Origin: Ancylobacter polymorphus
GTDB taxonomy: Bacteria > Pseudomonadota > Alphaproteobacteria > Rhizobiales > Xanthobacteraceae
Direction of reading: 5' to 3'
NCBI RefSeq assembly: GCF_030813495.1
Contig: NZ_JAUSUI010000007.1
Span: forward strand, 62,001-126,000
Length of the DNA stretch: 64,000 nucleotides
Part shown: positions 4,165-13,594 of the stretch, piece by piece
Layout: each line of letters begins with the position of its first letter
Numbering within the stretch: position 1 is the stretch's first letter
Position numbers and translations under genes: made by a program
Notes under the pieces: generated by a model
Told to the model about the DNA's origin: nothing
Seen by the model: the letters and a program-made list of their open reading frames with translations, nothing else
Database searches by the model: none

Positions 4165-4282
4165 TAGAGCACGCGCCGATCAGCCTGCATCGCAAGCTGA
4201 TCGGATAACGCGTTCTCTATCTTAGAGTTAGAGGGCGATTTACCGATCAGATTGATTCAATCTGATCGGATCGCACTCTAGA
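4165..4282. repeat. Dispersed palindromic repeat, CTCTAG-ended family, copy 2
   Basis: It holds two strong hairpins: a 9-bp stem (4177-4185 with 4196-4204) and a 13-bp stem (4243-4255 with 4257-4269) built on CCGATCAG. It ends in ACTCTAGAG. The stop codon of the BrkB-type gene (TAG, minus strand, 4278-4280) lies inside this end. The internal sequence differs from copies 1, 3 and 4, but the architecture and the shared end are the same. Confidence 0.65.
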
Positions 4283-5165
4283 GCCGGCCTTCGCGGGCGC
4301 GGCGGATGGCGGCGTTGAGTTCGCCGCCATACACGAAGATGGAGGCGGTGGTGTAGAGGAAGACCAGCGCGATCATGACCGAGGCGAGGCCGGCATAGGT
4401 GGTGACGTAATTGCCGGCGAATTCGGCGAGATAGCGCCCGAAGGCGGCACCGGCGGCGAGCCACAAGGCCAGCGTCACCAATATGCCCGGCAGCACCTGC
4501 GACAGGGTGCGCCGCCCCGCCGGCAGCCACATATGCGCCACGACCAGCGCCACGATCAGGATCACCGAGGTGGCGGCGTAGCGCAGGAAGGTGATGACCC
4601 AGCCGAAGGGTTCCAGCGCCGGCACATAGCGCACCGCCGCCAGCCACAGCACCGGGCCGAGCACCACGAGGAAGGACAGCGCCAGCAGCCCGGCGGCGCC
4701 AACCACGACATAGCCGATGGATTCGAGGCGCAGCCAGTACCAGGCGCGGGCCTCGCGCATGCCATAGGCACGGTTGAGCCCGATGCGCAGGCTCTCGATG
4801 CCGTTGGACGAGAAGTAGATCGCCAGCACCACACCGATGGTCAGCACGTCGGTGCGGACCTGGGTGAGCACGTTGCGGATCTCGCGGCCGATCGGGTCCG
4901 CCACCTGCGAAGGCCAGGCTTCCAGCATCAATTGCACCGTCTCGTCGGCGAGGTTCTTGAAATCGAAGAACGCCGCCAGCGCGGTGACGAAGATGAGGAA
5001 CGGGAACAGCGACATCAGCGCCGACAGCGCGATGTGGCTGGCGATCGCCCAGCCATCATCCTCGACGAAGCGCCAGAAGGCGTCCCAGGCAATGTCGAAG
5101 GCGCGAAACAAGAGTGGCGGTCTCCTCGCGGATCGCCTCGAGGGGCGGGCTTTGTGCCGTGACAT
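4278..5165 (-). CDS. YihY/BrkB family inner-membrane protein
   Basis: A 295-residue polytopic membrane protein of the YihY/virulence factor BrkB family. A cytosolic basic N-terminus (MSRHKARPSRRSARRPPLLF) leads into about six hydrophobic helices. Family-typical segments include HIALSALMSLFPFLIF, YFSSNGIESLRIGLNRAYG and the C-terminal YVTTYAGLASVMIALVFLY followed by GGELNAAIRR. Some family members were once annotated as RNase BN, wrongly. Transport or membrane-barrier roles have been suggested, but none is firm. The ATG at 5165 gives a family-length protein. It is divergent from proA across 148 bp. Its stop codon is supplied by the repeat at 4165-4282. Confidence 0.87.
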   Translation of the reverse strand: MSRHKARPSRRSARRPPLLFRAFDIAWDAFWRFVEDDGWAIASHIALSALMSLFPFLIFVTALAAFFDFKNLADETVQLMLEAWPSQVADPIGREIRNVLTQVRTDVLTIGVVLAIYFSSNGIESLRIGLNRAYGMREARAWYWLRLESIGYVVVGAAGLLALSFLVVLGPVLWLAAVRYVPALEPFGWVITFLRYAATSVILIVALVVAHMWLPAGRRTLSQVLPGILVTLALWLAAGAAFGRYLAEFAGNYVTTYAGLASVMIALVFLYTTASIFVYGGELNAAIRRAREGRL

Positions 5166-5313
5166 CGGATGCCGGCGCGCAAATGGCAAGCCTCGCGGGC
5201 CCGATATGGTAAAGAGCCGCGGCGATGGCCATTTGCTTTTGGCGCCCGGCCGCCGCTTCATGGTAGAGAGGGCGCCCGCTTTTAGCGCCCCTTGAACTCG
5301 AACGAGTGACATC

Positions 5314-6654
5314 ATGACCGCCTCCTCCGCCCTGCGCCCCGCCACCGTCTCCGCGTCCGTTGCCGGCGCGCCGGCGCCGCGCGGGCCGGAGGGTGAGGAT
5401 GTGCATGCGGTGATGGCCGGGATCGGCGCCCGCGCCCGCGCCGCCGCCCGCACGCTGGCGCTGGCCCCGGCGGCGGTGAAGGAGGCGGGGCTGCGCGCCG
5501 CCGCGCAGGCGATCCGCGACCGGGCGCCCGCCATTCTCGCCGCCAATGGCGAGGACCTCGCCGCCGCCCGCGCCGCGGGCATGAGCGCGGCGCTGCAGGA
5601 CCGGCTGGTGCTGAACGAGGCACGCCTTGAGGCCATCGCCCGGGCGGTGGAGGAGATCGCCGCGCTGCCCGACCCGGTGGGGCAGGTGACCGAGAGCTGG
5701 GAGCGGCCGAACGGCCTGCGGCTGGAGCGCGTGCGCACCCCGCTCGGCGTCATCGGCGTGATCTATGAGAGCCGGCCCAATGTGACGGCGGATGCCGGCA
5801 GCCTGTGCCTGAAGGCCGGCAATGCGGTGATCCTGCGCGGCGGCTCGGACAGCTTCCATTCCTCCCGCGCCATTCATGAAGCGCTGGTGGAAGGGCTCAC
5901 CAGCGCCGGCCTGCCGGCGGACGCGATCCAGCTGGTGCCGACCCGCGACCGCGCGGCGGTGGGCGAGATGCTGGCCGGGCTTGGCGGCAATCTCGACGTG
6001 ATCGTGCCGCGCGGCGGCAAGAGCCTCGTCGCCCGCGTGCAGGCGGAGGCACGGGTGCCGGTGTTCGCCCATCTCGAAGGGCTGGTGCATGTCTATGTCG
6101 ACAAGGCCGCCGATCTCGAAAAATCGCTCGCCATCGTGAAGAACGCCAAGCTGCGCCGCACCAGTGTGTGCGGGGCGGCGGAGACGCTGCTGGTCGACCG
6201 TGCGGATGCCTCCCGCCTGCTCGCCCCGCTCGTCACCATGCTGCTCGATGAGGGCTGCGCGGTGCGTGGCGACGAAGCCGCACGGGCGGTGGACCCGCGC
6301 GTGACCGAGGCCAGCGATGAGGACTGGCGCACGGAGTATCTCGACGCCGTCATCTCGGTGAAGCTGGTCGACGGGGTGGATGAGGCCATCGACCATATCG
6401 AGACCTATGGCTCGCATCACACCGACGCTATCCTCACCGAGGACGCCGCCACCGCCGAGCGCTTCCTCGGCGAGGTCGATTCCGCCATTGTGGTGCATAA
6501 CGCCTCCACCCAGTTCGCCGATGGCGGCGAGTTCGGCTTCGGCGGCGAGATCGGCATCGCCACGGGGCGCATGCATGCGCGCGGGCCGGTGGGTGCCGAG
6601 CAACTGACCTCGTTCAAATACCGCGTGCGCGGCACCGGCCAGATCCGGCCGTGA
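5314..6654 (+). CDS. proA: Gamma-glutamyl phosphate reductase
   Basis: A 446-residue cytosolic enzyme for the second step of proline synthesis, reducing L-glutamyl 5-phosphate with NADPH to glutamate 5-semialdehyde. It belongs to the aldehyde dehydrogenase superfamily: [19 protein letters not shown] and [11 protein letters not shown] form the cofactor region, and the catalytic cysteine is Cys286 in [29 protein letters not shown] near the end is diagnostic of ProA. The N-terminus is about 20 residues longer than usual and alanine/proline rich. The stop codon overlaps the GTG of nadD (GTGA). The partner gene proB, often just upstream in this order, is not there; a divergent BrkB gene takes its place. 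Confidence 0.97.
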
Positions 6655-7325
6655 GCGAGAGCGACGACGCTCCCCCTCTCCCCGTGGGGGAGAGGGTTGG
6701 GGTGAGGGGCCTTGACGCCGCCCCGCCGGCGCCCTTCGCCCGCATCCCCCCGCTCGCGCCGGGCATGCGGATCGGGCTCTATGGCGGCAGCTTCAACCCC
6801 GCGCATGAGGCGCACCGCGCCGCCAGCCTGCTGGCGCTGAAGCGGCTGCGGCTCGACCGCGTGTGGTGGCTGGTCACGCCCGGCAACCCCTTGAAGGACA
6901 ACCGCGCGCTGCCCCCGCTCGACGCCCGGCTGGCGCAGGCGCGGGCGGTGGCGGATCATCCCGCGCTGCTGCCGACCGGGCTGGAGGCCGGGCTCGGCAC
7001 CCGCTTCAGCTTCGACACGGTGGCGGCGCTGGTGCGGCGCTTTCCCGGCGTGCATTTCGTCTGGCTGATGGGGGCGGACAATCTCGCCGCCTTCCATCGC
7101 TGGCAGCACTGGCGGGAGATCGCGGCACTGGTGCCCATCGCCATCATCGACCGGCCCGGCTGCACCTTTGCCGCCATGGCGAGCCCGGCGGCGCAGGCGC
7201 TGGCGCGCTGGCGCGTGCCGGAGAGCGAGGCCGCCGTCCTGCCGCTGCTGCGCCCGCCGGCCTGGGTGTTCCTGCACGGGTTGAAATCGCCGCTGTCCTC
7301 GACCCAGTTGCGCGCGCAGGGGTAG
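6651..7325 (+). CDS. nadD: Nicotinate-nucleotide adenylyltransferase
   Basis: A 224-residue enzyme that adenylates nicotinate mononucleotide to deamido-NAD in NAD synthesis. Key motifs are [14 protein letters not shown] (nucleotide-binding HxxH, about residues 42-55), [15 protein letters not shown] in the middle, and the C-terminal PLSSTQLR (normally ISST.IR). The GTG start at 6651 overlaps the proA stop. Between that GTG and the conserved MRIGLYGG (6765) lie 38 codons, about 13 of which come from a dispersed repeat (6672-6711). The start could therefore really be the ATG at 6765, but that would lose coupling to proA. A decayed second copy of its 3' half lies at 10455-10740. Confidence 0.95.
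6672..6711. repeat. Palindromic intergenic-type repeat inside the nadD 5' end
   Basis: A short element with a 10-bp stem, CCCTCTCCCC pairing with GGGGAGAGGG, followed by TTGGGGTGAGGGGC. This sequence type is widely dispersed in proteobacterial genomes. Here it is read in frame as [12 protein letters not shown] within the nadD leader codons, or it sits in the leader if nadD starts at 6765. Confidence 0.75.
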
Positions 7326-7424
7326 GCCCGGGCGGGGCTCTGGCGAGGCACGGCGGGCCGTGCCAGACTGGTGCTTGGTTCCTCCCCCGGCAATGCCTCC
7401 CCCAACCATGCCTCTCGGTGCCTG

Positions 7425-8918
7425 ATGGTGTTCTCCCCGAACCGGCTTCTCCAGGAGCCGGCGCCTCTCGCGTGGCTGGAGCGCCAGAGCTGGCATCGCT
7501 GGCTCATTGTCGGCCTCGTCTCCATCGGCGCCTTTGTCGGCCAGCTCGACGCCACCATCGTGCAACTGGCGCTGCCGGCGCTGGGGCGGGCCTTCAATGT
7601 GCCGCTGCAGCAGGTGAGCTGGGTGGCTTTGTCCTATCTCCTCGCCTTCGCCTCCTTCCTGCCGATTTTCGGCCGGCTGTGCGAAATCCATGGCCGCAAG
7701 ACGCTTTATATTGCCGGCTATGCACTTTTCATCGCCGCCAGTGCGCTCTGCGCTCTGGCCGAGACCTTCGGCCAGCTCGTCGCCTTCCGCTTCCTGCAGG
7801 GCGTGGGCGGGGCGCTGCTCGGCGCCAACAGCATCGCGATTCTGGTGCAGGCGGTGCCGGAAGCGGCGCGCGGCCGGGCGCTCGGCTATTTCGCGGCGGC
7901 GCAGGCGGTGGGCATGAGCGCCGGCCCGGCGCTGGGCGGCTTCATCGTCGAGGCGCTGGGCTGGCGCTGGATCTTCGGCCTTACCGTGCCGTTTGGCGCT
8001 GTCGCCATTCTCGCGGGCTGGCTCGCTCTGCCGCGTGGGCCGGCGATTGGCCACAAGCCGGCCTTCGACTGGGGCGGGGCGCTGCTGATCGGACCGGCGC
8101 TGATCCTTCTGGTGGCGACGCTCAACCATGTGTCCAGCTGGCGGCTCGCCTCGCCGCTGACGCTGGCGAGCCTCCTCGTCGCCGCGCTGCTGCTGTGGGC
8201 CCTGCGCCGGCGCGAAGCGCGCACCGCCGCGCCGCTGATCGACCCGCGCCTGTTCACCGCGAGCGCCTTCCGCTGGGGGGCGCTGGCGGTGGTTCTGGGC
8301 TATGGGCTGCTCTATGGCGTGTTCTTCCTCATGTCCTTCGGCCTTGCCCATGGCTATGGCGAAAGCGCGGGGGCGGCGGGGCTGCGGCTGGCGCTGGTGC
8401 CGGTGGCGCTCGGCCTCACCGCGCCGCTCAGCCATGATCTGAGCCGCCTTCTCGGCGCCCGCTGGATCGGCCCCGCCGGCATGGGGAGCGTGCTGGCCGG
8501 GCTGGCCATTCTCGGCGCGACCTTCGGCCTCTCGCCCTATCACCATGTGCTGGACACGGTGTCCTTCGTGCTCATCGGCATCGGGCTCGGCCTGTTCGTG
8601 GCGCCTAACAGCCACGCCACCCTCGCCGCCGCGCCGGCCGGCCTCGCCGGGGCCGCGGGGTCGCTGCTCAATCTGATGCGGGTGCTCGGCACCAGCCTCG
8701 GCGTGGCCGCCGGGGCGAGCATGCTGGCCTGGCGGCTGAGGGTGGAAACGGGAAGCGGCGCCGGGACCGCCGATATGGCGGCCCTCGCCGCCGACGGCCC
8801 CGGCCTGCTCGCCGCCGTGCGCACCAGCCTGCCTCTGCTCGCCCTGATGGCGCTCGTCGCCGCCGTCGCCGCGCGAAAGGCGGCGGCGGGAGGGGGCGCT
8901 GAGGCGCGGAAGGGGTGA
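7425..8918 (+). CDS. DHA2-type MFS multidrug exporter
   Basis: A 497-residue inner-membrane transporter of the drug:H+ antiporter-2 (EmrB/QacA) family with about 14 hydrophobic helices. Helix 1 holds GQLDATIVQLALPAL. The loop 2-3 motif A is GRLCEIHGRKTLYI, and motif C-like AVGMSAGPALGGF sits in helix 5. EALGWRWIFGLTVPFG is typical of the family. Substrates are not predictable. The start is uncertain: a GTG at 7371 is in frame, and the ATG at 7425 was preferred. It lies directly after nadD and before nhaA, inside a segment that interrupts the usual nadD-rsfS order. Confidence 0.88.
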   Translation: MVFSPNRLLQEPAPLAWLERQSWHRWLIVGLVSIGAFVGQLDATIVQLALPALGRAFNVPLQQVSWVALSYLLAFASFLPIFGRLCEIHGRKTLYIAGYALFIAASALCALAETFGQLVAFRFLQGVGGALLGANSIAILVQAVPEAARGRALGYFAAAQAVGMSAGPALGGFIVEALGWRWIFGLTVPFGAVAILAGWLALPRGPAIGHKPAFDWGGALLIGPALILLVATLNHVSSWRLASPLTLASLLVAALLLWALRRREARTAAPLIDPRLFTASAFRWGALAVVLGYGLLYGVFFLMSFGLAHGYGESAGAAGLRLALVPVALGLTAPLSHDLSRLLGARWIGPAGMGSVLAGLAILGATFGLSPYHHVLDTVSFVLIGIGLGLFVAPNSHATLAAAPAGLAGAAGSLLNLMRVLGTSLGVAAGASMLAWRLRVETGSGAGTADMAALAADGPGLLAAVRTSLPLLALMALVAAVAARKAAAGGGAEARKG

Positions 8919-9021
8919 GTTGCGAAGGGGAGTTCTCCTCCCCCGCCCCTAGCCTTCCGCAGCGTCATGCCCTAAATACCCTCCTGGGTGTCGTCGGCTG
9001 CATCCCGCAGCTGGGGCAGGT

Positions 9022-10431
9022 ATGCGCTGGTCGGGCCGCCGCGCGGGACCTGTTTGCATGGCCGGACGCCTTTACCGTCGCACCAGCGCGCGTGCGCGCC
9101 TCGCCACCGAGCGCGCTTTCCACGCCGCCGAACGTTTCCTGCATATCGAAGCCGTCAGCGGCCTGGTGCTGCTGGCCGCTGCCGCGATCGCGCTGATCTG
9201 GGCGAATTCGCCCTATGCGCAGAGCTATCACGACCTCTGGCACGCGCCGCTGAGCATCGGCATTGGCGGCTTCGTCGTGTCGCACTCGCTGCATTTCTGG
9301 GTCAATGACGCGCTCATGACCCTGTTCTTCCTCGTGGTGGGGATGGAGATAAGGCGGGAAATCCATGAAGGCGCGCTCTCCAAATTGCGCGCGGCGGTGC
9401 TGCCGATGGCGGCGGCGGCGGGCGGCGTCGCCCTTCCCGCGCTGATCTATGTCGCGCTGAACCCGGCGCCCGGCCAGATCGAGGGATGGGCGGTGCCGAC
9501 GGCGACCGACATCGCCTTCGCGGTCGGCGTGCTGGCGCTGCTGGGGCGCTCCATCCCGCCCAATCTGCGGGTGTTCCTGCTGGCGCTGGCGATCATCGAC
9601 GACATCGCGGCGATCCTCATCATCGCCCTGTTCTATTCCGGCGGCATCGACCCGGCGGGGCTGCTGGTCGGGCTCGCCGGCCTCGCTTTGGTGGTGGCGC
9701 TGCAAATGGCCGGCATCGGCTCGGCCTGGGCCTATGTACTGCCCGGCGCGGTGCTGTGGATCGGCCTGTTGCAGGCGGGCGCGCACCCCACCCTCGCCGG
9801 GGTGATGCTCGGCATGCTGACCCCGGTGCTGCCGGCGCGCGGGCGCGAGCCGGCGCTGAATGCGGCGATGCGGGCGCTGGACGAGATCCGCGCCAAGGCC
9901 GCCCGTTCGCCGGAGGCGGCCGCCAGCCTGCTGCCGCCGCTGCGCCGCCTCGCCCTCGCCCAGCGCGAGATGACCCCGCCGGTGACGCGGGTGCAGATGC
10001 TGCTGCACCCCTATGTCGCCTATGGCGTGATGCCGGTCTTCGCCCTCGCCAATGCCGGGGTGAGCCTCGACGGGGTCGATCTCGGCCGGGCGGATGCCTT
10101 CGCCGTGATGGCGGGCGTGGTGCTGGCGCTGGTGGTGGGCAAGCCGCTCGGCGTGTTCGCCGCCAGCTGGCTGGTGGTGCGCGCCGGCTGGGGCAGCCTG
10201 CCGCCGGGCGTCACCTGGGGCGGGGTGCTGCTGGTGGGGCTGCTGGCCGGCATCGGCTTCACCATGTCGATCTTCATCGCGACGCTCGCCTTCGCCGACC
10301 CGGCGCTGCTCGGTGCCGCCAAGCTCGGCGTACTCGTCGCCTCGCTCACCGCCGTCGGCCTCGGCCTCGGCTGGGGCCTGGTGCAGGCGCGGCGGGCGCG
10401 GGCGGTGGCGCCGGTTTCCGCCTCGGCCTGA
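9022..10431 (+). CDS. nhaA: Na+/H+ antiporter NhaA
   Basis: A 469-residue inner-membrane antiporter that exchanges cytoplasmic sodium for external protons and supports pH and salt homeostasis. The ion-binding aspartates are in ATDIAFA (Asp163) and IIDDIAA (Asp193-Asp194), with the same 30-residue spacing as Asp133/Asp163-164 of the E. coli protein. The N-terminal [20 protein letters not shown] is also characteristic. The ATG at 9022 has a GGGGCAGG five bases upstream; an ATG at 9058 is an alternative. The C-terminal extension beyond the last helix is short and basic. It lies 103 bp after the MFS gene. Confidence 0.95.
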
Positions 10432-10454
10432 GGCGGGGCAGGGGGCGGGCGGGC

Positions 10455-10740
10455 CGAAGGGGCGCTTTCCCCGTGGTGCCTGTCGTCTGGCGGATGGGGC
10501 GTACAACCTCGCCTGCCTCTACCGTTGGCAGCACTGGCGCGAGATTGCCGCGCTGGTGCCGATGACGATCATCGACCGCCCCGGATGCACCTTCCCCGCC
10601 ATGGCCAGCCCGGCGGCGCAGGCGCTCGCCCGCGGGTGTCGGAGTTCGAGGCGGCGGCGCTGCCGCTGCTGCGCCCGCCGGCCTGGGTTTTCCTGCACGG
10701 GCTGAAATCGCTGGTGTCGTCGATGCGGATACGGGGGGAG
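10455..10740 (+). pseudogene. Decayed second copy of the nadD 3' half
   Basis: This stretch aligns collinearly with 7030-7325 of nad[14 protein letters not shown] is identical, IIDRPGCTF and [12 protein letters not shown] follow in one frame, then after a 4-base deletion near 10632 the reading continues in another frame as [17 protein letters not shown]. The final SSTQLR motif has become SSMRIR. There is no 5' half and no start, so no working product is possible. The copy sits at the far end of the MFS-nhaA segment, so nadD sequence flanks that segment on both sides. The remaining bases up to 10816 are GC-rich and show nothing else. Confidence 0.88.
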
Positions 10741-10816: not shown

Positions 10817-12349
10817 TCAAGTAGATTCATTTGGCTCGTTCGACAGAAACTGCATTTCTCGGATGTAGGTTCCAAAGTCACCGAACCCCAGTGGATGCTC
10901 TCTTTTCTCTAGGTCCCGCAACACTCGCTCGTAGTCATCTTTTACAAGCGCGCGCTCCTCTGGCCCCGCATCTTTGAAGGCGTACGTTTCAAGGATATCG
11001 AAGGGACCGGCTGTGATGATCCGCTTGCCTCCATCTATGACGTCCTGTAGCACTGTCCGGCGGATCAGATGTCCAAACGTCCACCCTGCTAGCTCCGAGA
11101 GGGAGTAGTGCAGAAACGAGGTGACGCCCGGCGCCAAAGGCGTGGTTGCATCGCATTGAAAGCGAACCAAGGGAGCGCAACCCTCTGACAGGTAGCCTAA
11201 GTCTGTGATGTGCGCGTTGATGTCTGCGAGGGAGAAAGAAAGGTCACGAATATTCCGGTCGTTGGCAATGGTCCGTATCGCCTCTGCCAAACTGTAGAGC
11301 TTCTCCCAATCCAGATTCTGGCCCGTTTGTCTATCGATAATGATTGACGAATCGATCTTGCGACTACCTAGCCATAGTTCGACCCGCAGCGGCCCTTTCA
11401 TCGACCACAGCTTGAGCCGGGAATAGGTGTGCCAGTGATCAAGAGGCGCAGGTTCATTAAACCTCATGACCATATTCATGGCCACCTGCTGCGGACTGAA
11501 CAGAATTTCTACCGGAGGTGCGGACACTCGAATGGGTGCCTCTGGCGCGAATGGCATCGCATACATCATTCCCGTCATATGGAAGGCGGCGTCCGTCAGC
11601 GAAGAGCGGAACCGAACGTCGCAAGTGCCTTGTGGCTGCGGAGTGATGTAAACTGTGCCGCCGGTCTCTGACACTTTTCGCGAATAGTCGGGGACAGAGA
11701 AGCGCTCCGGGACGTACTCGAAGCTCGATATTTTCAATCCGTTTCCGATACCGAGAAATTCTTTGAATATCTCGTCGTTTGTGTGCTCGGCGAAGAGGAG
11801 CTTTGCGGTGCCATACCCTTTCTCGTGTCCAATTTCGGTGTAGAGTCTACGCTTCTCAATGATGTAGTCACCCTGCGTATCAATGCATTCCTGCATCCAC
11901 TTTATGAAATCTCCAGAGATAATGTCGCCCTCAGTGAACGATATCGACATGGATCTCTTGTTGATCTTGACGCCATTTACATCGGCTGCGCGGATCATTT
12001 TCAAGCTACGCGCTATAAGGTCCGTCCAGAAGTGCTTGATGTACAGTACAGGCTCGCCGTGTCGCTTCTTGATGAGTACGACAAACCAGGGGCTTGGGTC
12101 CTGGGCGGATTTGCGCAGATTGGAGAGCGTGATGGGAACGGATGTCTTGAGGCCCTCGATAGATTTCACCTGGACGAAAGCTCGCTGGCGAGGAGGCTGG
12201 CTGTCAGCAGGGCCATCGTAGTCCCGATGCGGCAGCTCAACGACATAATCCCAGCCGCCTTCGTCCTCATCGACCCGATGACATAGGCCGTCGAATTCAG
12301 ACACTTTAGCGGCAAAGAAACGTTCCGCATATGCGGGGAGACGCGTCAT
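10817..12349 (-). CDS. Orphan protein with DUF4365-like (nuclease-type) N-terminal domain
   Basis: A 510-residue protein that I do not recognise as a named family. Residues 1-100 resemble DUF4365: FFAAKVSEFDGLCHRVDED, then GWDYVVELP (Asp34, Glu38), RAFVQVKS (Gln60-Val61-Lys62) and SPWFVVLIKK. The Asp...Gln-x-Lys spacing is that of a PD-(D/E)xK nuclease core. Residues 100-510 are soluble-looking alpha/beta sequence with no motif that I know. The gene is clearly poorer in GC and uses different codons from its neighbours, pointing to horizontal transfer. It lies alone, reversed, between the nadD remnant and rsfS. DUF4365 domains often occur in defence or nucleic-acid-processing proteins, but function here is inference. 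Confidence 0.72.
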   Translation of the reverse strand: MTRLPAYAERFFAAKVSEFDGLCHRVDEDEGGWDYVVELPHRDYDGPADSQPPRQRAFVQVKSIEGLKTSVPITLSNLRKSAQDPSPWFVVLIKKRHGEPVLYIKHFWTDLIARSLKMIRAADVNGVKINKRSMSISFTEGDIISGDFIKWMQECIDTQGDYIIEKRRLYTEIGHEKGYGTAKLLFAEHTNDEIFKEFLGIGNGLKISSFEYVPERFSVPDYSRKVSETGGTVYITPQPQGTCDVRFRSSLTDAAFHMTGMMYAMPFAPEAPIRVSAPPVEILFSPQQVAMNMVMRFNEPAPLDHWHTYSRLKLWSMKGPLRVELWLGSRKIDSSIIIDRQTGQNLDWEKLYSLAEAIRTIANDRNIRDLSFSLADINAHITDLGYLSEGCAPLVRFQCDATTPLAPGVTSFLHYSLSELAGWTFGHLIRRTVLQDVIDGGKRIITAGPFDILETYAFKDAGPEERALVKDDYERVLRDLEKREHPLGFGDFGTYIREMQFLSNEPNEST

Positions 12350-12690
12350 TGAGAAGTTCGCCTTACACTTTAGAAGCCAATTGGGCGCGCCATTCAGGTT
12401 TTGACGGCTATATTATGATGATTATGTTCTCTCGCAAGTAGCTCATATAAGCCCGCACTCGCTTGATTCTATTTGTCTTTCCTAAGGGCAGAAACACTGC
12501 ATGCGACACCAAAGTTGCATACCAACGACGCCCACTTTGTCCGAAGGCCAACTGAAAACGGGCAGCCCCACCTCCCCACCCCCCGGTTGAAGATCGGCCG
12601 CATCCGCATTATCCTAAGGGGGCAGGCACGGTGCGGAAGGGCCGTCCGTGGCTTGCGGTAAAGACGAGAGGATCAGGACCCCTGTCCATC
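12350..12690. other. Intergenic region, AT-rich left part, rsfS leader at right
   Basis: The first 190 bp (to about 12540) share the low GC of the orphan gene on its left and probably hold that gene's minus-strand promoter, which I could not pin down. GC rises sharply from about 12545, marking the right edge of the foreign DNA. The only recognisable signal after that is the promoter-like pair listed at 12587-12615. No small gene is supported. Confidence 0.6.
12587..12615 (+). promoter_or_regulatory. Candidate sigma70-type promoter for rsfS
   Basis: TTGAAG (12587-12592), 17 bases, then TATCCT (12610-12615), about 75 bp before the rsfS start. Since the nadD-rsfS junction has been broken by inserted genes, rsfS and the genes after it need their own promoter, which supports the call. 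The match to consensus is only moderate. Confidence 0.45.
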
Positions 12691-13104
12691 ATGGCGCTTG
12701 CAGCGGCCGACACCAGCCCGGCGACTGCACCTGTCTCCGACGCGCGCTTCGACGCCGAGGAGATTCTTGCCCTCGTTCTCGCCCGTCTAGATGATGACCA
12801 GGCCGAGGACGTCGTCTCCATCGAACTGCGCGGCAAGACGACCATTGCCGATTACATGGTCGTCGCCTCCGGCCGCAACCAGCGTCATGTCGGCGCCATT
12901 GCCGAGCACCTCGTCGAGGCGCTCAAGGGCCTTGGCGTCAAGGGCGTGCGCGTCGAGGGCCAGCCGGCCTGCGACTGGGTGCTGATCGATGCGAGCGACG
13001 TGATCGTCCACATCTTCCAGCCGGAAGTGCGCGGGTTCTACAATATCGAGAAGATGTGGTCGGCCGCCATTCCCGGCGGGCCGTCGACGCTGACGCGCGG
13101 CTGA
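12691..13104 (+). CDS. rsfS: Ribosome silencing factor RsfS
   Basis: A 137-residue cytosolic protein of the Iojap/RsfS family, which binds ribosomal protein uL14 and blocks subunit joining in starvation. Conserved blocks are [20 protein letters not shown] (about residues 52-71), [19 protein letters not shown] and [16 protein letters not shown] at the end. A GTG at 12631 is in frame, but the ATG at 12691 gives the usual length with a short alanine-rich lead. It is followed after 7 bp by rlmH. In relatives it normally follows nadD directly; here the two are separated by about 5.4 kb. Confidence 0.95.
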
Positions 13105-13111
13105 GCGCGTC

Positions 13112-13594
13112 TTGCGGCTCATTATTCTCGCGGTCGGCCGGCTGAAGGCCGGGCCCGAAAGGGAGTTGTGCGCCCGCTATCTCGACCGCTCGGCCAAGGG
13201 CGGGCGGGCGCTCGGCCTGTCCGGCCCTGACGTGACCGAGATCGCGGAAAGCGCCGCGCGCCGCCCCGAAGACCGCATGGCCGAGGAGGGTGCCGCCCTT
13301 CTCGCCGCGCTGCCCGAGGCCGGGGCGGTGCTGGCGCTCGACCCGCGTGGGCTGGAGATGACCAGCGAGCAGATCGCCGCCGACCTCGCCGCCCTGCGCG
13401 ACCGGGGTTCGCGCAGCCTCACCTTCGTCATTGGCGGAGCGGACGGGCTGAGCGAGGCGGTACGCGGGCGGGCGGACCGGCTGATCGCCTTCGGCCGCGC
13501 CACCTTTCCCCACCAGCTCGTCCGCGTCATGATGGCCGAACAGATCTACCGCGCGACGACGATCCTCGCAGGCCATCCCTACCATAAGGCCTGA
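13112..13594 (+). CDS. rlmH: 23S rRNA pseudouridine-1915 N3-methyltransferase
   Basis: A 160-residue SPOUT-class methyltransferase that uses S-adenosylmethionine to methylate pseudouridine 1915 in helix 69 of assembled 70S ribosomes. The trefoil-knot SAM site is [18 protein letters not shown], and the C-terminal signature is [20 protein letters not shown] followed by GHPYHK. The start is TTG at 13112, giving [14 protein letters not shown], the normal beginning of the family. It is 7 bp after rsfS and clearly in the same transcript. Confidence 0.96.

What the first reader, a model, noticed from the sequence alone, without database searches (positions are those of the whole stretch)
7030..10740. 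MFS-nhaA segment flanked by nadD and a frameshifted copy of its 3' half
Bases 10455-10740 align collinearly with nadD 7030-7325 and carry a 4-base deletion near 10632. The usual nadD-rsfS order is broken exactly here. A duplicated gene end on both sides of a two-gene cargo is what remains when a circle or linear fragment carrying a nadD 3' end recombines at the resident nadD. The copy has diverged, so the event is old or the donor was another species. It shows how transporter genes can enter an essential operon without killing the gene.
Basis: partly seen in the sequence, partly recalled or inferred. Interest (0 to 1): 0.75.

Follow-up and report, generated by a model that had tools for sequence, protein, structure and literature searches.

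The report
Displaced nadD ends mark inserted genes
In one group of Ancylobacter bacteria, extra genes have repeatedly been added behind the housekeeping gene nadD, and broken-off tails of older nadD copies seem to show where one addition ends and an older one begins.

Summary
Window 10455-10740 is a decayed copy of the nadD 3' half (82% identity over aligned bases, direct orientation, indels including the 4-base deletion). The explanation is broader than proposed. In Ancylobacter the nadD-rsfS gap is open (about 2-6.5 kb, changing cargo) in 12 of 13 members of one clade and at most 265 bp in the 17 other congeners held. Three of the 12 open intervals clearly hold a nadD 3'-end remnant: this genome and its sister G002 share one behind nhaA, and G015 has one directly before MFS. 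A fourth (A. vacuolatus, before MFS) is possible. G015 is the clearest: its remnant is 93-96% identical to intact nadD of G000/G002 but 78% to G015's own nadD, which no longer groups with its sister species. So a newer nadD plus one small gene displaced the old nadD and left its tail. I infer serial insertion anchored at nadD, most likely by one-sided homologous recombination; no integrase was seen among the ORFs scanned. MFS and nhaA need not have arrived together. Which copy is foreign in the window itself is unresolved. A new variant of a known kind, of moderate interest.

The parts
5314..6654 (+). proA, conserved gene upstream of nadD
   Evidence: NCBIfam PRK00197.1, E 4.5e-174; tree groups G000, G002, G015
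6651..7325 (+). intact nadD; from the GTG the frame first runs through a dispersed palindromic repeat (6675-6695), so the real start may lie further in
   Evidence: NCBIfam PRK00071.2-2, E 9.8e-80, above its cut-off; repeat
7326..7440 (+). nadD-MFS spacer, homologous to the spacer between the nadD remnant and MFS in G015
   Evidence: alignment
7371..8918 (+). MFS transporter, DHA2/EmrB-like
   Evidence: Pfam MFS_1 E 4.8e-44; TIGR00711 below its cut-off
9022..10431 (+). nhaA Na+/H+ antiporter
   Evidence: TIGR00773 380 bits, above its cut-off of 254
10455..10740 (+). displaced nadD 3'-half remnant, frameshifted
   Evidence: matching remnant in G002
10817..12349 (-). AT-rich 510-codon ORF; its N-terminal part resembles plasmid proteins annotated as DUF4365; sporadic
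12571..12630 (+). about 60 bp before rsfS, matched in G002 and in 7 other open intervals (G001, G012, G015, G019, G023, G026, G028); right edge of the variable slot
   Evidence: blastn
12631..13104 (+). rsfS, conserved right flank
   Evidence: TIGR00090 E 6.5e-33
13112..13594 (+). rlmH, conserved right flank
   Evidence: PRK00103.2-3, E 2.3e-68

Best explanation
The nadD-rsfS gap became an accretion site in one Ancylobacter clade. New DNA arrives as a nadD copy (or its end) joined to one or a few genes. The left end recombines homologously in the proA-nadD region; the right end joins inside the old nadD or next to older cargo. The cell keeps one working nadD, and the 3' end of the displaced one stays as a remnant at the boundary between new and old cargo. 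Shown: the open interval in one clade, the remnants, an incongruent nadD in G015, the shared nadD-end-to-MFS junction, and no integrase or transposase among the ORFs scanned. Inferred: that the right-hand join is illegitimate (homology-facilitated illegitimate recombination), that the window's own remnant arose the same way, and the vehicle that brings the DNA.
For: Interval open in 12 of 13 clade members and closed in 17 of 17 other congeners; gene order rsfS to rndA is the same in all 12. The G015 remnant is 95.7/93.2% identical to G002/G000 nadD over 162 columns and 78.4% to its own; homology runs on into MFS. Both flank trees give ((G000,G002),G015) with full support, but a G000+G002+G015 intact-nadD clade is rejected (AU p 0.017), as is remnant plus own nadD (p 0.023). 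dS G000-G015: proA 0.17, rsfS 0.10, nadD 0.39; G015's nadD is no closer to G000 than to G019 (0.27). The G015 layer is one complete 79-codon gene whose stop lies 4 bases before the remnant. Left borders of the clear remnants differ (profile positions 306/307 and 431). G000 and G002 remnants differ about evenly over codon positions (9, 13, 13), as expected of neutral decay.
Against: Only 3 of 12 open intervals clearly hold a remnant; the others could have been filled by ordinary double recombination. The A. vacuolatus remnant is weak: nhmmer E 0.0027 over 68 bp, while the proA profile reached E 0.0026 in the control flanks; it rests on its blastn score (E 2e-13, other apparently chance matches down to about 6e-6) and on its place. 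This control, which I had first passed over, led me to lower my confidence from 0.68 to 0.64. The nadD tree is short (301 columns), its bootstrap had not settled and 15 of 29 inner branches are open. dS for G000-G015 is also high in rlmH (0.295), MFS (0.30) and nhaA (0.39), so part of the nadD excess may be rate variation or wider exchange. The window's own remnant is unplaced. No microhomology was seen at the G015 join. The mechanism is said to be rare, orders of magnitude below ordinary recombination (PMC5361080 passages).
Confidence: 0.64

Rival explanations
1. Campbell-type integration of a circle carrying a nadD 3' part plus cargo: a single homologous crossover at nadD gives a hybrid intact nadD, the cargo, and a 5'-truncated second copy.
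For: Reproduces the G000/G002 layout: intact nadD, MFS, nhaA, truncated nadD in direct orientation.
Against: In G015 the first differing sites of the remnant already match G000/G002, not G015's nadD, so a crossover would have to lie at its very edge. No plasmid in the collection covers 80% or more of the MFS-nhaA segment (0 of 119 matching records).
Confidence: 0.2
2. Import from the right: a fragment with a truncated nadD end, cargo and rsfS recombined homologously at rsfS and joined illegitimately behind nhaA, so the remnant is the newcomer and the intact nadD-MFS-nhaA is resident.
For: Remnant placement is unresolved; most states that set both remnants apart from the intact copies occur in other species' nadD (19 of 23 sites; 15 in A. 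aquaticus).
Against: rsfS and rlmH of G000/G002 follow the same grouping as proA; does not explain G015, where the remnant is on the nadD side of MFS.
Confidence: 0.15
3. Local tandem duplication of nadD within the lineage, with transporter genes later inserted between the copies and the second copy decaying.
For: Grouping the remnants with G000, G002 and the G015 remnant is not rejected (AU p 0.536; likelihood slightly higher). At 4 of the 10 sites where intact G000/G002 differ from six other species the remnants share their state.
Against: At the other 6 of these 10 sites the remnants do not, 4 of them near the 3' end. Does not explain the incongruent nadD in G015.
Confidence: 0.15
4. Site-specific mobile element integrating at the nadD 3' end and carrying its own replacement end, integrase since lost.
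For: Gene 3' ends are classic integration sites and the gene stays intact (recalled, no call).
Against: Borders of the clear remnants differ; no integrase or transposase domain among the interval ORFs scanned.
Confidence: 0.05

Closest known systems
Sequential displacement of T6SS effector genes in Vibrio cholerae (PMC5361080, passages read)
   Same: A conserved upstream stretch acts as anchor, new modules arrive stepwise, old genes and a displaced effector 3' end are shifted downstream; a process akin to homology-facilitated illegitimate recombination is proposed there.
   Different: There the anchor and cargo belong to one effector-immunity system; here the anchor is a housekeeping gene and the cargo genes are of unrelated families.
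Minimal mobile elements of Neisseria (definition read in passages of PMC3898611; original paper not read)
   Same: A variable stretch between two conserved genes with different whole-gene cassettes.
   Different: Defined by homologous recombination alone, between strains; here remnants of the flanking gene are left behind, and the comparison is between species.
Hotspots of gene transfer without mobile elements (PMC5635113, passages read)
   Same: Cargo turnover without recognised integrases, recombination at flanking core genes; nadD of G015 is incongruent with the flank trees.
   Different: The model there is double recombination in both flanking core genes; here pieces of the left gene are left behind.
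Rhs/CDI C-terminal displacement with orphan 3' ends (named in PMC5361080 passages; otherwise recalled)
   Same: Displaced 3' ends lie downstream of a live copy.
   Different: Proteins with variable 3' regions; nadD keeps one conserved sequence and function.

Membership tests
Minimal mobile element | Region between two conserved genes | tested here: met
   proA-nadD on the left and rsfS-rlmH on the right in all 12 open intervals
Minimal mobile element | Different whole-gene cassettes in different strains | tested here: inconclusive
   Met between species; only one genome per species is held, so strains were not compared
Minimal mobile element | Incorporated solely by homologous recombination | tested here: inconclusive
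   nadD remnants with differing left borders suggest a non-homologous join on one side
Transfer hotspot without mobile elements | No integrase or transposase | tested here: met
   33 of the 47 ORFs listed scanned with Pfam, plus two AT-rich ORFs found later. Of the 14 not scanned, 13 are homologous to scanned genes or are pieces of nadD; an 82-codon ORF in G010 was not examined. The ORF list favours GC-rich third positions and missed the two AT-rich ORFs, so others may be missed
Transfer hotspot without mobile elements | Recombination in a flanking core gene | tested here: met
   nadD of G015 incongruent with both flank trees; dS raised, though not in nadD alone
Sequential displacement by homology-facilitated illegitimate recombination | Displaced old 3' end directly behind the newer module | tested here: met
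   G015; A. vacuolatus only possibly
Sequential displacement by homology-facilitated illegitimate recombination | Non-homologous join at one end, seen against donor and recipient sequences | not testable with these tools
   Donor molecules are unknown
Integrative element at a gene 3' end | Integrase gene and constant attachment core | tested here: not met
   No integrase among scanned ORFs; borders of the clear remnants differ

The most novel reading that the evidence does not exclude
The end of an essential housekeeping gene works as a one-sided landing pad. Linear fragments of a few kilobases, perhaps delivered by a gene transfer agent whose marker domain 28 of 30 congeners carry, anchor in proA-nadD and stack their cargo at the nadD end. 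The remnants then give a readable order of arrival, newest next to nadD.
Probability: 0.24. Interest if true: 0.65.

Novelty: new variant of a known kind. Interest (0 to 1): 0.42.

Why it matters
Many hotspots lack recognisable mobile elements, and recombination in their flanking core genes was inferred from statistics over many genomes (PMC5635113 passages). Here single loci seem to keep physical evidence: displaced ends of the flanking gene, which can say which side was the anchor, which allele was replaced and in what order the layers came. If it holds, such remnants could be searched for next to core genes in general, to tell one-sided insertion from double recombination.

Tried and rejected
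Site-specific integration at a fixed attachment core was set aside because the clear remnant borders differ and no integrase was found among the ORFs scanned.

MFS-nhaA as one foreign unit more diverged than its flanks was my first reading (note). It weakened when DNA identities (cassette 87%; flanks about 90-93%) and dS for G000-G015 (MFS 0.30, rlmH 0.30, proA 0.17) overlapped. nhaA (0.39) stays high and could have its own history.

The weak nadD-like match in A. aquaticus (G028, 6188-6243, E 0.24) does not stand out from the control flanks (best E 0.18) and was not counted; nor were the weaker nadD matches in G007, G009, G010 and G019 and the second ones in G000, G002 and G015.

Remnants of other core genes: the best interval matches were rsfS E 0.021 (46 bp in G007, a like one in G009), proA 0.048 and rlmH 0.30; the control flanks gave 0.068, 0.0026 and 0.018. 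None is convincing, and the proA control shows how far chance can reach here.

Plasmids as source: 119 records match part of the segment, none 80% of it; the ten best listed cover about 37-40% at about 66-71% identity.

Codon-position test for whether the window's remnant diverged while functional: differences shared by both remnants against intact G000/G002 are 4, 4, 15 by position (7, 7, 17 if the uncertain left edge is kept), but 19 of 23 of these states occur in other species' intact genes, so many changes may lie on the intact side; I give it little weight.

Paper searches that led nowhere: 'minimal mobile element' with two further terms found nothing; the Ancylobacter search and two phrase searches listed nothing on this locus. 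In one search, 196 papers held at least 4 of 5 terms and none of the 15 listed contains nadD.

Rows dropped: G010 was left out of the nadD tree (its match breaks near the 3' end), leaving 29 of 30 intact genes, and the A. vacuolatus remnant was left out as too short. The proA tree has 25 of 30 genomes because the other five gave no proA match in the stretch held.
Full report
What is there. The window comes from an Ancylobacter relative: the nearest loci found are from Ancylobacter species and a Xanthobacteraceae strain. The order is proA, nadD, MFS transporter, nhaA, a nadD 3'-half remnant, a 510-codon AT-rich ORF on the other strand, rsfS, rlmH. The remnant (10455-10740) aligns with nadD 7030-7325 at 82.1% of aligned bases; 487 random stretches of the window reach at most a score of 26 against 334 observed.

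The gap in relatives. In 30 genomes of the genus held here, the 17 outside one clade have rsfS at most 265 bp after nadD, measured between matches. In the clade of 13 (98/96 in the proA tree, 100/98 in the rsfS-rlmH tree), 12 have an interval of about 2 to 6.5 kb and one (G021, A. moscoviensis) about 250 bp. In a wider search of 80 loci, which includes some of the same species, 70 have a gap of 39-365 bp, 7 are open (all in this clade) and 3 had no rsfS match. Right of rsfS the order of the eight genes checked is the same in all 12 open genomes, so the variability is local.

The cargo. Intervals hold YkuD and LysR genes (A. dichloromethanicus, A. aquaticus), a Bmp-family (PnrA-like) gene in four, a response regulator and histidine kinase in two, lipid-kinase-like, phosphoesterase, DLH and Na/Pi transporter genes in two, a 650-codon family in two at about 50% identity, and arginase and a DEAD helicase in one. 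Next to rsfS there is often a single AT-rich gene: the 510-codon ORF here, a different 257-codon ORF in G002, a PD-T4-6 homologue in G007 and a PDC-M36A homologue in A. koreensis (both PADLOC families), a 226-codon ORF in G009. No integrase or transposase domain was found among the ORFs scanned (33 of the 47 listed, plus two more); the ORF picker favours GC-rich genes.

Remnants of nadD. A DNA profile of the genus nadD finds clear remnants in 3 of the 12 intervals: G000 (E 1.8e-57), G002 (8.7e-47) and G015 (2.1e-28), and a possible one in A. vacuolatus G026 (0.0027). The best nadD-profile hit in the 112 kb of control flanks is 0.18; but the proA profile reached 0.0026 in those flanks, so the fourth cannot rest on its E-value. 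It has a better blastn score than apparently chance matches (E 2e-13 against about 6e-6) and lies just upstream of MFS, where the G015 remnant also lies. All four are in direct orientation and are 3' portions, with left borders at profile positions 306, 307, 431 and 502. proA, rsfS and rlmH profiles find nothing convincing in the intervals (best E 0.048, 0.021, 0.30; controls 0.0026, 0.068, 0.018). G000 and G002 share one remnant (support 100/99), behind nhaA.

The G015 case. G015 is the sister of G000+G002 in proA and in rsfS-rlmH (support 100 in both). Its intact nadD does not follow: a clade with the G000 and G002 genes is rejected (AU p 0.017). The remnant, which lies between that nadD and MFS, groups with G000 and G002 (89/97, not starred), and grouping it with its own nadD is rejected (p 0.023). 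The tree has 301 columns and its bootstrap had not settled. Identity is 95.7 and 93.2% to G002 and G000, 78.4% to G015's own (162 columns), and homology continues through the spacer into MFS. dS between G000 and G015 is 0.17 in proA, 0.10 in rsfS and 0.39 in nadD, but also 0.30 in rlmH and MFS and 0.39 in nhaA. Between G015's nadD and the remnant lies one complete 79-codon gene; DNA similar to it lies elsewhere in A. dichloromethanicus and A. aquaticus (76-81%). So the old order was nadD-MFS, and a newer nadD with one small gene displaced the old nadD and left its last 55 or so codons. The first differing sites at the left edge of the remnant match G000/G002 (and some other species), not G015's nadD, which fits a join inside the old gene rather than a crossover within it.

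The window's own case. By the same reasoning nadD-MFS-nhaA is the newer layer and the remnant the end of an older nadD. This is inference: the placement of the remnant is unresolved (p 0.536 with the intact copies, 0.223 with G015). At the 10 sites where intact G000 and G002 differ from six other species, the remnants carry their state at 4 and not at 6. Differences between the two remnants are about even over codon positions (9, 13, 13), as for a pseudogene.

Mechanism and vehicle. One-sided insertion with a homologous anchor is known as homology-facilitated illegitimate recombination; for Vibrio cholerae effector arrays a process akin to it was proposed to add modules stepwise and to shift a displaced 3' end backward, and the same paper calls it rare (PMC5361080, passages). 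It has been described in naturally competent species and in E. coli conjugation (PMC3240628, start of the abstract in the search listing; PMC2884548, passages). A ComEC-type competence domain is present in 29 of 30 congeners, but also in 10 of 14 control genomes, so it says little. A gene transfer agent domain (PF13547) is in 28 of 30 congeners and 1 of 14 controls. Either could deliver linear DNA; neither was tested.

Known or new. The place works like a minimal mobile element (definition in PMC3898611, passages) or a hotspot without mobile elements (PMC5635113, passages). What is different is the flanking-gene remnants at layer borders, with a housekeeping gene as the anchor. I saw no paper on this locus in the listings, which cover open-licence papers only and show the top of longer lists. 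I rate it a new variant of a known kind.

Noticed in passing
10817-12349 (-): AT-rich 510-codon ORF with no Pfam, NCBIfam or PADLOC match at the limits used; 15 plasmid records hold weak relatives, 5 of the 10 listed annotated DUF4365; found in 8 of 297 genomes of the order (own included), one at 68% identity in another family. Candidate single-gene defence or nuclease gene (inference).
   Followed up: partly
slot just left of rsfS in L038, L039, L033, L040: Single AT-rich genes of different families occupy this slot in different species, two of them homologous to PADLOC families (PD-T4-6, PDC-M36A), two without a match. It may be a useful place to look for new defence genes.
   Followed up: partly
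6675-6695: Palindromic dispersed repeat between proA and nadD, 8 exact matches to its pattern in the genome and none to the reversed control; the long nadD frame reads through it.
   Followed up: partly
L041 (G010), nadD 3' end: The nadD match breaks into two overlapping pieces near the 3' end, suggesting a frameshifted or altered C-terminus.
   Followed up: no
L033 (G002) 4264-5931 (-): A DUF900 alpha/beta hydrolase gene sits between MFS and nhaA in the sister species, so the pair has been split there or joined here.
   Followed up: no
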